A stretch of DNA of 64,000 nucleotides, taken from positions 3,745,001 through 3,809,000 of the forward strand of contig NZ_CP023865.1 in the NCBI RefSeq assembly GCF_003711105.1. Direction: 5' to 3'. A program made the translations under genes and the position numbers. The first letter of the stretch is position 1, and the number at the start of each line of letters is the position of its first letter. The notes beneath the pieces were generated by a model, which made no database searches, was not told the DNA's origin, and saw only the letters and a program-made list of their open reading frames with translations. Source of the DNA: Actinoplanes teichomyceticus ATCC 31121 (GTDB lineage: Bacteria > Actinomycetota > Actinomycetes > Mycobacteriales > Micromonosporaceae). Shown here piece by piece: positions 18,222 through 51,323 of the stretch.

Positions 18222-19574
18222 GTGAGCGCGGCGATGGTGGAGGCCCCCGCGGCCCTGGAGCCGCGGACGCTGGCCGGTGTGCTGGCCCGCTGCGCCCGGC
18301 GGCACGGTGTCCCCGGCGCCCAGCTGGCGGTCCACCAGGACGGCCGGACGGTGACCGCCGAGTTCGGCGAGGTGGAGCACGGAACCGGCCGGCCGGTCAC
18401 CGCGGACACCGCCTTCCCGGTCGGGTCGGTCACCAAGGCGTTCACCGCCGCCGTCGTGCTGGCCCTGGCCGCGGAGGGCGATCTGGAGCTGGACGAGCCG
18501 GTGGGCGTGCACGTGCCGGGACTGCCCGCCGCGGCCGCCGCCGTCACCATCGGCCAGCTGCTCAGCCACACCGGTGGCCTGCCGTGCGGGCCGGCGCCCG
18601 AGCAGGTGGCCGGCCTCTCCGTGCGGGGATACCTGCGCCAGGCGGTACGCCCCGACGTCATGGTGCTGCCGCCGGGCGGCGGCTTCTCCTACTCCAACGT
18701 GGGCTACGTGCTGCTCGGCGAGGTGGTCTCCGGGATCACCGGGATGAGCTGGGCGGAGGCCGTGACCGCGGTGCTGCTGCGGCCGTTGGGCACCTCCACC
18801 GACCTGATCGGCGCAGGGTTCGCCGGCTCCGGCCGGCCGATCGCCAGCGGCCACTCCCGCCACCGGAGCACCGGGCGCGTCCGGCCGGTCCGGCAGTGCC
18901 TGGTCACGGCCGAGGCGGCGGCCGGCGCACTGGCCCTGAGCGCCGCCGACCTGGTGACGTTCGGGCGGTTGCACATCGGTGACGGGATCCCGGACGTGCT
19001 GCCCGCCGGGCACGCCGCCCGGATGCGCGAGGTGGTGCCCGGGGCGGTGCCGTTCGGCCTGGCCCGGGGCTGGGGGCTCGGGCTCGCCGCGTTCGGCGAG
19101 ACGCCGTACCGGTGGTTCGGGCACGACGGCAACGCCGACGGCACCGACTGCCATCTGCGGATCGAACCGGCGGCCGGCCGGGTGGTGGCGCTGACCGCGG
19201 GCATCGGCGCCGGGTCCGGGATGTGGGCCGAGCTCACCGCCGAGCTGCGCGGACTCGGCATCCCCCTGGACGACGGCCTGCCGCAGGGCGACGCCTGGCC
19301 GGCCGCCGCGACCGACTGCGTGGGCACCTACCGCAACGGGGACCTCACCTACGAGGTGCTCCCGGGCGGTCCGTACGGGCTGCGCTTCCGCGTCGACGGC
19401 GAGGACGCCGAGCCGCTCGTGCTCGGCGCCGATCTCACTTTCTATCTGCGCGACGATTCATCCGACCGGTGGACCGTCGGCGGACGCTTTGTGCGAGAGA
19501 ATTGCCGCGGCCCGGTGAACGCTGTGCAAGTCGGCGGTCGCATCGGGCGCCGTTGTGCCGAGGCGTTGATCTAG
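18222..19574 (+). CDS. Penicillin-binding-protein-type thioesterase/peptide cyclase (SurE-like)
   Basis: This 450-residue serine hydrolase of the beta-lactamase/DD-peptidase fold has the nucleophile motif S69-V-T-K72, the second motif Y157-S-N159 and H301-D-G in place of KTG. Ser/Lys/Tyr/Asn/His at these spacings correspond closely to SurE of surugamide biosynthesis (recalled as Ser63, Lys66, Tyr154, Asn156, His305). A C-terminal lipocalin-like beta domain (about 320-450) also fits. No signal peptide is present, as expected for a cytoplasmic biosynthetic enzyme rather than a cell-wall peptidase. PBP-type thioesterases release NRPS chains in trans by head-to-tail cyclisation and favour a C-terminal D-residue. 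The NRPS downstream ends in an E domain and lacks a thioesterase, exactly the partner expected. A beta-lactamase role is less likely. Confidence 0.85.
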   Translation: MSAAMVEAPAALEPRTLAGVLARCARRHGVPGAQLAVHQDGRTVTAEFGEVEHGTGRPVTADTAFPVGSVTKAFTAAVVLALAAEGDLELDEPVGVHVPGLPAAAAAVTIGQLLSHTGGLPCGPAPEQVAGLSVRGYLRQAVRPDVMVLPPGGGFSYSNVGYVLLGEVVSGITGMSWAEAVTAVLLRPLGTSTDLIGAGFAGSGRPIASGHSRHRSTGRVRPVRQCLVTAEAAAGALALSAADLVTFGRLHIGDGIPDVLPAGHAARMREVVPGAVPFGLARGWGLGLAAFGETPYRWFGHDGNADGTDCHLRIEPAAGRVVALTAGIGAGSGMWAELTAELRGLGIPLDDGLPQGDAWPAAATDCVGTYRNGDLTYEVLPGGPYGLRFRVDGEDAEPLVLGADLTFYLRDDSSDRWTVGGRFVRENCRGPVNAVQVGGRIGRRCAEALI

Positions 19575-19602
19575 CCGCAGGCGCCATTCACGCAATTCAC
19601 GA

Positions 19603-19636
19603 CCGGTAGCACGGGGATGCACGCACCGGATTTTTT
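19603..19636 (+). terminator. Hairpin plus T-run between thioesterase and NRPS genes
   Basis: Arms CCGGT (19603-19607) and ACCGG (19625-19629) enclose an inner GCA/TGC pair (19609-19611 / 19618-19620) and are followed by six T residues (19631-19636). This is a classical intrinsic-terminator shape, uncommon in such GC-rich DNA. It lies 30 bp before the first NRPS start and could be an attenuator setting the thioesterase-to-NRPS ratio. Confidence 0.5.
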
Positions 19637-19665
19637 AGTTGCCGTGTCCGAAAGGTTTGAGCGAC

Positions 19666-49862: not shown

Positions 49863-51082
49863 CGGCGCCGCTGTCGCGTAACCGGGACTACCGGCTGCTC
49901 TGGCTGAGCCAGGCCGGCGCCGAGTTCGGGCACAACGCCACCACGATCGCGTTTCCGCTGCTGGTGCTCGCGGTCAGCGGTTCCACGGCCGCGTCCGGCC
50001 TGGTGCTGAGCGCCATCGCGGCCGCCCAGCTGGTGGCGGGGCTGCCGGCCGGCGCGGTCGCGGACCGCTGGAACCGCAAGCGGGTGATGCTGGCCTGCGA
50101 GGCGGCACAGGCGCTGGCGCTGGCCGGTCTGGTCGCCGCGGTGCTCGCCGGGGTGGCGACGGTGCCGCACATGGTCGCCGTCGCGGCGGTGCTCGGCGTC
50201 TGCACCGCGCTGTTCGAGCCGGCCGAGGACGCCACCCTGGCCGCGCTGGTGCCCGAGGAGCAGCTCGGCGCCGCGGTCGCCGCCAACGCGGCGCGTACCT
50301 CCCTGGGGCAGGTGGCCGGCACGGCGGCCGGCGGCGTGCTGTTCGCCGCCGGGCGGTTCCTGCCGTTCGCCGTGGACGTGCTGACCCACGTGGCCGCGTT
50401 CGCCGCGCTGGCCTTCCTGCGGGTGCCGCCGCGCCGGCCGGCGCCGGAGCCGGTGCGCCGGCTGGGTCCGGAGATGCTGGCCGGGCTGCGCTGGATGTGG
50501 CGGCACCCGGTGATCCGCTCCACCACCGGGTACGCGGTCGTGCTGAACCTGTTCTTCAGCGCCTTCTACCTGGTGGTGATCGTGCTGGCGCAGCGGCGGG
50601 GCGCCACCGCGGCCGAGATCGGGCTGATGGCCGCGATGCTCGGCGCGGGCGGGGTGGCCGGCGCCCTGCTGGCGCCGCCGCTGCACCGGCTGCTCGGCCC
50701 GTACGTCTCGGTCACCGCGGTGTTCTGGGTGCTGTCCGTCCTGGTCCCGCTGACCGCGCCGGCCCGCGACGGCTACCTGATCGGCGCCCTGTTCGCCCTG
50801 ATGGCCCTGCTCGCGCCGACCGCGAACACCACCATCGTCACCCAGCAGATGCTGCTCACCCCGGACGGGCTGCGCGGCCGGCTCAGCGGCGCGCTGGGAC
50901 TGCTGACCGGCGCCGCCGGGGCGCTCGGCCCGGTGCTCGGCGGGCTGCTCACCGAGCTGCTCCCGGGCACGGGCGCGGTGCTGGTCTGCGCCGCCGGCAT
51001 GGCCGTGGTGACGGTCCTCGCCACCGCCAGCCCGGTGCTGCGCGCGCTGCCCCGGCGTCAACCGGCGCCGGTACCCGAGTGA
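49859..51082 (+). CDS. MFS exporter, likely for the cluster's peptide
   Basis: This 407-residue major-facilitator protein has about twelve hydrophobic segments. It starts at GTG 49859 and overlaps the NRPS stop by 4 bp (GTGA). The N-terminus SRNRDYRLLWLSQAGAEFG and ADRWNRKRVM place it in the MFS_3/EntS-like group that exports siderophores and nonribosomal peptides. Tight coupling to the synthetase argues that it exports and perhaps gives resistance to the product. Confidence 0.9.
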   Translation: MTAPLSRNRDYRLLWLSQAGAEFGHNATTIAFPLLVLAVSGSTAASGLVLSAIAAAQLVAGLPAGAVADRWNRKRVMLACEAAQALALAGLVAAVLAGVATVPHMVAVAAVLGVCTALFEPAEDATLAALVPEEQLGAAVAANAARTSLGQVAGTAAGGVLFAAGRFLPFAVDVLTHVAAFAALAFLRVPPRRPAPEPVRRLGPEMLAGLRWMWRHPVIRSTTGYAVVLNLFFSAFYLVVIVLAQRRGATAAEIGLMAAMLGAGGVAGALLAPPLHRLLGPYVSVTAVFWVLSVLVPLTAPARDGYLIGALFALMALLAPTANTTIVTQQMLLTPDGLRGRLSGALGLLTGAAGALGPVLGGLLTELLPGTGAVLVCAAGMAVVTVLATASPVLRALPRRQPAPVPE

Positions 51083-51116
51083 CCGACCGATCCGCCCGAC
51101 ACCGAAGGAGACCACG

Positions 51117-51323
51117 ATGGACGACGACGCCCGCTACGAGGTGCTGCGCAACGACGAGGACCAGTATTCGCTGTGGCTGCTGGGGCACGACGTGCCGGCC
51201 GGATGGCACCGGGTCGGCAAGGAGGGCACCCGCGACGAGTGCTCCGCCTACGTCGACGAGGTGTGGACCGACATGCGGCCGCGCAGCCTGCGTGAGCAGA
51301 TGGACGGGGCCGCGACGGCCTGA
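51117..51323 (+). CDS. mbtH: MbtH-like NRPS chaperone
   Basis: This is a 68-residue MbtH-family protein with the signature pattern NDEDQYSLWL…PAGWHRVG…ECxxYVDEVWTDMRPxSL and the conserved tryptophans. MbtH proteins bind adenylation domains and are often essential for their solubility and activity. The ATG at 51117 follows GAAGGAG (51104-51110). It is the last gene of the cluster, 34 bp after the transporter and just before a strong hairpin. Confidence 0.97.
   Translation: MDDDARYEVLRNDEDQYSLWLLGHDVPAGWHRVGKEGTRDECSAYVDEVWTDMRPRSLREQMDGAATA

What the first reader, a model, noticed from the sequence alone, without database searches (positions are those of the whole stretch)
18222..51323. NRPS encodes a strictly alternating L,D octapeptide
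Seen directly: eight modules with E domains in modules 2, 4, 6 and 8 and nowhere else. The C domain after every E is of the DCL-like type (YPLTPxQAGM) and the others are LCL-like (PLSxxQxRLW), so the stereochemical code is internally consistent. Predicted configuration is L-D-L-D-L-D-L-D. If cyclised, an alternating D,L octapeptide adopts a flat ring that stacks into beta-sheet-like tubes, an architecture known mainly from synthetic cyclic D,L-alpha-peptides. I do not recall a natural assembly line with this exact eight-residue pattern.
Basis: partly seen in the sequence, partly recalled or inferred. Interest (0 to 1): 0.95.

Follow-up and report, generated by a model that had tools for sequence, protein, structure and literature searches.

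The report
Alternating L,D ring-peptide assembly line
An actinobacterium carries a complete enzyme assembly line that should make an eight-residue ring of strictly alternating left- and right-handed amino acids, probably water-repelling on one side and positively charged on the other, a layout that chemists designed for membrane-active antibiotics and that nature may have reached on its own.

Summary
18222-51323 holds a stand-alone PBP-type thioesterase, two NRPSs (3 + 5 modules), an MFS exporter and an MbtH protein. E domains sit in modules 2, 4, 6 and 8 only (4 of 4 pass TIGR01720), and the C domains match in type.

Codes suggest Hyd-Hyd-Ser-Bas-Bas-Bas-Ser-Hyd, the layout of synthetic antibacterial D,L-cyclooctapeptides. 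The line occurs in 4 of 67 genus genomes searched (own included), and five further octamodular alternating lines occur in Kibdelosporangium, a 'Rhodococcus' record and three Actinokineospora; basic-type codes stand at 4-6 in 9 of 9.

So it is not unique: eight hexamodular alternating lines were also found, surugamide is L-D-L-D-L-L-D-D, and lugdunin is a natural seven-membered alternating ring. My searches showed no product. Residue identities and membrane action are inference.

The parts
18222..19574 (+). Stand-alone penicillin-binding-protein-type thioesterase (peptide cyclase), 450 aa; S69, K72, Y157, N159, H301; Gly235 at the SurE Gly235 position
   Evidence: Pfam Beta-lactamase; best PDB matches SurE 6ksu 2.5e-72 and Ulm16 8fek 4.9e-68; S, K, Y, H invariant in 84 of 84 TE sequences aligned, N159 in 77 of 84, G235 in 82 of 84
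19639..29850 (+). NRPS1, modules 1-3; TTG at 19639 is the first start after a stop, later in-frame starts (such as 19684, 19714) are possible
19717..20415 (+). C-domain remnant (model positions 189-444) without HHxxxD: no acylating starter C
20446..22170 (+). Module 1: A1-T1, code DALLLGAVVK, no E (L)
22240..26646 (+). Module 2: C2 (LCL-type)-A2-T2-E2, code DALLVGAVVK (D)
26734..29781 (+). Module 3: C3 (DCL-type)-A3-T3, code DVWHISLVDK, Ser-type (L)
29847..49862 (+). NRPS2, modules 4-8; ATG overlaps the NRPS1 stop; ends after E8, no TE
29997..34415 (+). Module 4: C4 (LCL-type)-A4-T4-E4, code DTEDMGFVDK, basic-type (D)
34509..37628 (+). Module 5: C5 (DCL-type)-A5-T5, code DTEDMGYVDK, basic-type (L)
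37698..42149 (+). Module 6: C6 (LCL-type)-A6-T6-E6, code DSEDLGMVDK, basic-type (D)
42243..45296 (+). Module 7: C7 (DCL-type)-A7-T7, code DVWHLSLVDK, Ser-type (L)
45363..49847 (+). Module 8: C8 (LCL-type)-A8-T8-E8, code DALLIGAVVK (D); terminal module
49859..51082 (+). MFS exporter, overlaps the NRPS2 stop
   Evidence: Pfam MFS_1 and MFS_3 over cut-off; NCBIfam best TIGR00900, then EntS, both below cut-off; at the same place in the three genus orthologues
51117..51323 (+). MbtH-like protein
   Evidence: in all eight other alternating octamodular lines an MbtH match lies in an open frame that begins inside or within 400 bases before the MFS gene

Best explanation
This is an Actinoplanes-type gene cluster for a head-to-tail cyclic octapeptide of strictly alternating configuration, cyclo(L-Hyd1-D-Hyd2-L-Ser3-D-Bas4-L-Bas5-D-Bas6-L-Ser7-D-Hyd8). 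Shown from sequence: eight modules in two proteins; E domains with intact core motifs in 2, 4, 6 and 8; matching C types; no starter C domain and no C-terminal TE; a SurE-like stand-alone cyclase, an exporter and an MbtH protein in one tight gene run. Inferred: module 1 loads a free amino acid; the chain is built L-D-L-D; the PBP-type TE takes the D-configured chain end from T8 and joins it to the free L N-terminus, so the ring alternates without a break; the MFS protein exports it. More speculative: the ring has a hydrophobic arc (8, 1, 2) and a cationic arc (4, 5, 6) with Ser at both borders, lies flat, stacks by backbone hydrogen bonds and acts on bacterial membranes, as synthetic D,L-cyclooctapeptides do. 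My confidence is about 0.86 for the cyclic alternating octapeptide, 0.65 for the hydrophobic/Ser/basic layout and 0.4 for stacking and membrane action.
For: Domain order and motifs; TIGR01720 in 4 of 4 E domains; C typing holds in other lines. TE best matches are SurE and Ulm16, catalytic residues conserved. PBP-type TEs join an N-terminal L to a C-terminal D residue; wild-type SurE, with Gly235, needs a C-terminal D residue and disfavours charged ones (PMC11735501, passages), which fits E8 and the nonpolar code of module 8. The line is present in 4 of 67 genus genomes (own included); E domains of the three others are 61-81% identical, dN below dS for every domain compared. The class of each code is the same in the four genus lines; letters differ at modules 2, 6 and 7, and in G004 A7 is only 51% identical and Thr-type, a change that keeps a small hydroxyl residue. 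Five more octamodular alternating lines, in two other places of the TE tree, also have xxED.G.VDK codes at 4, 5 and 6 (9 of 9 lines in all) and DALLxGAVVK at 1 and 8 (9 of 9). Synthetic alternating cyclooctapeptides with a D-L-D leucine arc and a D-L-D lysine arc are antibacterial when charged enough: COP 3 16/16 and COP 4 16/32 ug/ml against E. coli/S. aureus (PMC4207412, abstract and passages).
Against: No product has been detected. The corrected codes of modules 1, 2 and 8 matched nothing in the text library, so 'large hydrophobic' is structural inference. The basic reading of 4-6 rests on E239/D278, shared with the ApnA codes DVEDIGA[IV]EK read as Arg (PMC5311044, one passage); they differ at 236, 299, 322, 331 and partly 330. 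E2 has HHLVVDA instead of DG and an unusual later motif (RRGIGHGARHRATG). The mirror-symmetric layout is seen only in the four genus lines: elsewhere module 2 has no A domain, and position 7 is DAYFWGVTFK (2 lines) or DALLxGAVVK (3 lines). E4 of G311 and G321 lacks the TVGWF string, and their E6 and that of three Actinokineospora vary the residue before it. Alternation is common in this TE group (8 hexamodular lines), so it need not have been selected for stacking. In the synthetic series activity fell with charge: COP 5 32/128, COP 6 128/128, COP 7 and 8 above 256, COP 9 also called inactive; the predicted ring would carry about three positive charges.
Confidence: 0.86

Rival explanations
1. 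A cyclic alternating octapeptide, but an ordinary one: it acts as a monomer on a specific target or as an ionophore, and the alternation is just an inherited habit of PBP-TE assembly lines. (This shares the product with the best explanation and differs in the action.)
For: Alternating lines of six modules with PBP-type TE were found in 8 of 29 complete lines parsed, a set chosen partly for not excluding alternation. Surugamide, also a PBP-TE octapeptide, is L-D-L-D-L-L-D-D, and the passages I read mention no tube action.
Against: Basic-type codes at 4-6 and nonpolar ones at 1 and 8 are kept in lines from three places of the TE tree, which points to a whole-ring property rather than a single contact.
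Confidence: 0.4
2. The product deviates from the line: an E domain is inactive or leaky, a module is skipped or iterated, or the TE hydrolyses, so the peptide is not an alternating octamer.
For: E2 departs at two motifs; SurE can ligate and cyclo-dimerise short chains (PMC11735501, passage).
Against: E2 keeps HHxxxD, EGHGR, RTVGWFT and FNYLG and passes TIGR01720, if narrowly (77.7 against 74.2); the Ala at that motif position also occurs in E2 of all three genus orthologues; C3 after E2 is of the D-accepting type; dN is below dS for every domain.
Confidence: 0.1
3. The gene at 18222 is a true beta-lactamase or D-aminopeptidase for self-protection and not the cyclase.
For: Pfam and NCBIfam name it beta-lactamase-like.
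Against: Of 46 NCBIfam matches 25 were shown, all far below their cut-offs; SurE and Ulm16 are ahead of the next PDB match by more than 40 orders of magnitude; NRPS2 has no TE; 77 of the 80 related loci show an NRPS domain in the stretch held.
Confidence: 0.04

Closest known systems
Surugamide A line (SurA/SurD + SurE)
   Same: Eight residues, cyclic, stand-alone PBP-type TE, D at the C-terminus; starts L-D-L-D
   Different: Surugamide is L-D-L-D-L-L-D-D and carries one Lys among Ile, Ala, Phe and Leu types (PMC11012974, passages); here strict alternation and three basic-type positions
PBP-type TE hexapeptide lines (ulleungmycin/Ulm16, desotamide and wollamide/WolJ)
   Same: Same cyclase family; hexamodular relatives found here alternate L-D-L-D-L-D
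   Different: Six residues; whether a known hexapeptide alternates strictly (longicatenamycin) I only recall and could not check
Lugdunin (fibupeptide)
   Same: Natural cyclic peptide of alternating D,L residues that stacks into membrane tubes (PMC11045845, abstract and passages)
   Different: Seven-membered with a thiazolidine, odd number, from Staphylococcus; release chemistry differs (recalled)
Synthetic cyclic D,L-alpha-peptides (Ghadiri type; COP series)
   Same: Eight residues, strict alternation, hydrophobic arc opposite a cationic arc; COP 3-7 and 9 have D-Leu-Leu-D-Leu-X-D-Lys-Lys-D-Lys-X (PMC4207412)
   Different: Synthetic; here Ser is predicted at both borders and residue identities are unproven; activity in the series depends strongly on net charge
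Linear gramicidin
   Same: Alternating L,D nonribosomal channel peptide (recalled)
   Different: Linear, 15 residues, other release (recalled)

Membership tests
PBP-type thioesterase (SurE family) | Catalytic Ser, Lys, Asn, His | tested here: met
   S69, K72, N159, H301 aligned with SurE and relatives
PBP-type thioesterase (SurE family) | Two domains, the second lipocalin-like | tested here: inconclusive
   Full-length alignment with SurE, residues 18-443 against 32-469; no model was folded
PBP-type thioesterase (SurE family) | Stand-alone gene beside an NRPS without C-terminal TE | tested here: met
PBP-type thioesterase (SurE family) | Substrate with N-terminal L and C-terminal D residue | tested here: met
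   Module 1 without E, module 8 with E; a prediction from domains, not from a product
PBP-type thioesterase (SurE family) | Catalyses head-to-tail macrolactamisation | not testable with these tools
   needs the enzyme
Cyclic D,L-alpha-octapeptide (tube-forming architecture) | Even number of residues with strict alternation | tested here: met
   Predicted from E and C domains
Cyclic D,L-alpha-octapeptide (tube-forming architecture) | Closed ring | tested here: inconclusive
   Cyclase gene present; product unseen
Cyclic D,L-alpha-octapeptide (tube-forming architecture) | Stacks into tubes | not testable with these tools
   needs the compound
Surugamide family | Configuration L-D-L-D-L-L-D-D | tested here: not met
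   E in 2, 4, 6, 8 here against 2, 4, 7, 8 in sur
Fibupeptides (lugdunin) | Thiazolidine in a seven-membered ring | tested here: not met
   Eight modules ending in E8; Pfam shows no reductase domain in NRPS1 or NRPS2; that lugdunin's thiazolidine arises from reductive release is recalled

The most novel reading that the evidence does not exclude
Actinobacteria make a natural family of amphiphilic, strictly alternating cyclic D,L-octapeptides (nine lines found, in three places of the TE tree) whose charge layout equals that of designed nanotube antibiotics. They would be, as far as I know, the first natural octameric members of that architecture, stacking in membranes as channels. Alternating hexameric relatives may belong to the same story.
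Probability: 0.35. Interest if true: 0.88.

Novelty: new variant of a known kind. Interest (0 to 1): 0.72.

Why it matters
Even-numbered self-assembling cyclic D,L-peptides are known as synthetic compounds; the natural example read here, lugdunin, is odd-numbered, and its authors note that an even number favours a planar ring with strong, defined hydrogen bonds between stacked rings (passage). A conserved natural octamodular line with its own cyclase makes directly testable whether evolution uses the flat tube-forming ring. It offers genes and a cyclase for making such rings biologically, and the nine lines are a natural structure-activity series.

Tried and rejected
Text searches for ten-residue codes: one search used the corrected codes and found nothing; searches used codes with a wrong position 278 and count for nothing; one search found one paper, with Arg-type ApnA codes. 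Position 278: my by-eye reading for modules 1, 2 and 8 and the script took a residue four places too far on, and the script one place too early for those modules; one search uses the GrsA register, which I recall. I did not align the A domains to GrsA itself; 1amu appears only as a table hit.

Literature on natural alternating octapeptides: the listings and abstract starts (0 papers; 30 of 48 listed; 11 of 12; 2; 14; 20 of 54) showed none to me; I opened six papers, by abstract or passages only. The library lacks most subscription journals, so this is weak evidence of absence. No tool compared the line with MIBiG.

Idea that the pattern is unique to the window: rejected. Idea that all octamodular alternating lines form one TE clade: not supported; they fall in three places of an 84-protein FastTree tree, midpoint-rooted, with no support values printed. 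Module orthology between the window and Kibdelosporangium (G311) is mixed: E2, E4, E6, E8 and C3, C5, C6, C7, C8 match the same module best, C2 and C4 do not, and of seven A domains only A4 and A5 do. With Actinokineospora terrae three of four E and four of seven C domains match the same module best.

dN/dS: Nei-Gojobori values in very GC-rich genes; dS is likely underestimated, so only the direction is used.
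Full report
What is there. The interval 18222-51323 is a compact run of five genes on the + strand: a 450-aa stand-alone PBP-type thioesterase (18222-19574), NRPS1 (19639-29850), NRPS2 (29847-49862, its ATG overlapping the NRPS1 stop), an MFS exporter (49859-51082, overlapping the NRPS2 stop) and an MbtH-like protein (51117-51323). Outside the run lie an IclR regulator (14823-15593) and a GH6 glycosidase (15989-17344) on the left and an RtcB-like gene (51439-52617, - strand) on the right; I found nothing that ties them to it.

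Modules. NRPS1 is [C remnant]-A-T / C-A-T-E / C-A-T and NRPS2 is C-A-T-E / C-A-T / C-A-T-E / C-A-T / C-A-T-E. E is in modules 2, 4, 6 and 8 only. All four E domains exceed the cut-off of TIGR01720, a model that does not match the two C domains tested, C3 and C4, and all keep HHxxxD, EGHGR and RTVGWFT. E2 is the weakest (77.7 against 74.2 bits) and has Ala for Gly after HHLVVD; so do E2 of the three genus orthologues, and E6 of the three Actinokineospora lines has Ala there too. All 36 E domains of the nine octamodular lines keep HHxxxD and EGHG; the TVGWF string is missing in E4 of G311 and G321.

Stereochemical gating. C3, C5 and C7 carry YPLTPxQAGM; C2, C4, C6 and C8 carry PLSxxQxRLW. Profiles trained on these seven domains and applied to lines outside the genus agree with position: 93 of 96 domains labelled post-E follow an E, 100 of 100 labelled the other type follow a T without E; the three exceptions are in G316, G330 and G322b.

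Release. NRPS2 ends after E8. The gene that Pfam calls beta-lactamase has SurE (6ksu, E 2.5e-72) and Ulm16 (8fek, 4.9e-68) as best solved relatives, the next being 3.9e-24. Ser69, Lys72, Tyr157 and His301 are invariant in 84 of 84 TE sequences aligned, Asn159 in 77 of 84. [quoted passage not shown] that wild-type SurE requires a C-terminal D residue and prefers neutral, aliphatic and aromatic ones; and that Gly235 shapes this pocket. The window's TE has Gly at the aligned position (my reading of the alignment, counting the tag offset from the catalytic Ser; 82 of 84). Module 1 has no E and no starter C, so a free L N-terminus is expected, and E8 gives the D end. Ring closure D8 to L1 leaves no break in the alternation.

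Residues (prediction). Codes from an alignment of the A domains (register of positions recalled from GrsA): DALLLGAVVK, DALLVGAVVK, DVWHISLVDK, DTEDMGFVDK, DTEDMGYVDK, DSEDLGMVDK, DVWHLSLVDK, DALLIGAVVK. Modules 3 and 7 are Ser-type (recalled). Modules 4-6 have E239 and D278, as have the ApnA codes DVEDIGAIEK and DVEDIGAVEK in a Planktothrix table, which I read as Arg (PMC5311044, one passage; the table's columns were flattened); I take 4-6 as Lys, Orn or Arg. Modules 1, 2 and 8 have a wholly nonpolar pocket; I take them as large hydrophobic, residue unknown. The ring is then mirror-symmetric about residues 1 and 5: hydrophobic 8-1-2, Ser 3 and 7, basic 4-5-6. Of 560 arrangements of 3+3+2 residues, 8 give this pattern and 24 give both arcs unbroken, so the layout is suggestive, not proof.

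Relatives in the genus. A TE search of 67 genus genomes, own included, found 18 with a match at E 1e-40 or better; four matches are above 60% identity (window, G065 78%, G004 65%, G024 62%). All four carry the whole line with the same domains in the same order. I examined two weaker genus matches, G009 and G051, which are different four-module lines, and none of the others. Full domains are 51-87% identical to the window's, E domains 62-81%, with dN below dS throughout. In G004 A7 is the outlier at 51% and Thr-type, with flanking C7 and C8 at 71 and 70%, as if the A domain had been exchanged for one with another hydroxyl residue. In a sample of 300 genomes of the family, 9 (own included) have a TE match at 1e-90 or better. 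The genus is named Actinoplanes here because G065 and G004 are the named records L048 (A. utahensis) and L049 (Amorphoplanes auranticolor).

Wider survey. A scan of named genomes gave 80 TE loci, the best of 147; 77 of the 80 show at least one NRPS domain in the stretch held. Wider regions of 29 of the 80 were parsed, chosen because their first modules did not already exclude alternation or as comparison, so the counts below are not frequencies; three more, fetched, run off their contigs. One search parsed 35 regions: those 29, two second TE places in the same genomes (G319a, G322b), the window, G024, G172 and G184. Six run off the fetched DNA or start unclear (G300, G301, G312, G319a, G172, G322b). 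The other 29 are: nine octamodular strictly alternating (window, G065, G004, G024, Kibdelosporangium aridum, a record titled Rhodococcus rhodnii, Actinokineospora terrae, globicatena, diospyrosa), all split 3 + 5; eight hexamodular strictly alternating; nine decamodular L-D-D-D-L-D-L-D-L-D; two hexamodular L-L-L-D-L-D; one dimodular. In the five octamodular lines outside the genus module 2 has no A domain of its own.

Conserved layout. In 9 of 9 octamodular lines codes 4, 5 and 6 are of the type xxED.G.VDK and codes 1 and 8 are DALLxGAVVK. Position 3 is Ser-type in 7 and DVFSVAAVYK in 2; position 7 is Ser-type in 3, Thr-type in 1, DAYFWGVTFK in 2 and DALLxGAVVK in 3, so the exact mirror symmetry belongs to the genus lines only. 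The nine TEs fall in three separate places of the tree (no support values printed). E domains of Kibdelosporangium match the window's E of the same module best, 4 of 4; A domains mostly do not. I read this as an old backbone architecture with changing A domains under selection for a charged arc facing a hydrophobic one; that is inference.

How it may act. Lugdunin, a natural alternating cyclic heptapeptide, inserts in membranes and stacks into water-filled tubes; its authors note that an even number of residues favours a planar ring and ring stacks held by strong and defined hydrogen bonds (PMC11045845, abstract and passages). Synthetic alternating cyclooctapeptides with a leucine arc and a lysine arc inhibit E. 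coli and S. aureus: COP 1 and 2 (four plus four residues, one Leu replaced by Trp in COP 2) at 16 and 8 ug/ml; those with D-Leu-Leu-D-Leu and D-Lys-Lys-D-Lys arcs at 16/16 (COP 3), 16/32 (COP 4), 32/128 (COP 5), 128/128 (COP 6), above 256 (COP 7), and COP 9 is called inactive; activity falls with net charge (PMC4207412, abstract and passages). The predicted ring has those two arcs in the same chirality register, with Ser in both joining positions and about three charges, as COP 4 has. This is the basis for the membrane hypothesis and nothing more; no product is known to me.

Novelty. Surugamide, a PBP-TE octapeptide, is L-D-L-D-L-L-D-D (PMC11012974, passages). My searches (titles and abstract starts) showed no natural strictly alternating octapeptide. 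I file the line as a new variant of PBP-TE cyclic NRPS lines; the tube-forming reading would be of high interest if shown.

Noticed in passing
L034 (G009) 16803-18458 and L035 (G051), reverse strand: A PBP-type TE domain is fused in frame to the C-terminus of a four-module NRPS (no stop between T and TE), whereas the 2024 review describes these TEs as stand-alone. The strings GS[IV]T[KR] and YSN were not matched; GHDG is present.
   Followed up: partly
Lines G311, G321, G322, G323, G324, module 2: Module 2 of the five alternating octamodular lines outside the window's genus is C-T-E with no A domain between C and T; T2 must be loaded in trans or by a neighbouring A domain.
   Followed up: partly
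L043/L044 (G184): A dimodular A-T / C-A-T-E line with PBP-type TE and MFS: an L-D unit that may need iteration to give a ring.
   Followed up: no
Streptomyces lines G303-G306, G308, G310, G313, G314 and Lentzea G307: A recurrent decamodular PBP-TE line L-D-D-D-L-D-L-D-L-D, product unknown to me. Of three whose codes I read, G303 and G305 have two basic-type codes each (modules 6 and 8) and G307 one.
   Followed up: no
G315, G317, G318, G320, G319b, G328, G329, G309: Eight hexamodular strictly alternating L-D-L-D-L-D lines with PBP-type TE and MFS.
   Followed up: partly
G000:C1:3498001-3538000 (L183, L184): The same genome has a seven-module NRPS set with E in 2, 4 and 5, the layout of glycopeptide antibiotics (layout recalled); this hints, by recall only, at Actinoplanes teichomyceticus.
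   Followed up: partly
L096: The record titled Rhodococcus rhodnii lies in a 12.4-Mb genome, and its line and TE are close to those of Kibdelosporangium aridum; the label is probably wrong.
   Followed up: no
window 56209-57849, - strand: A 546-aa ORF with two universal stress protein stretches, unrelated to the cluster.
   Followed up: no
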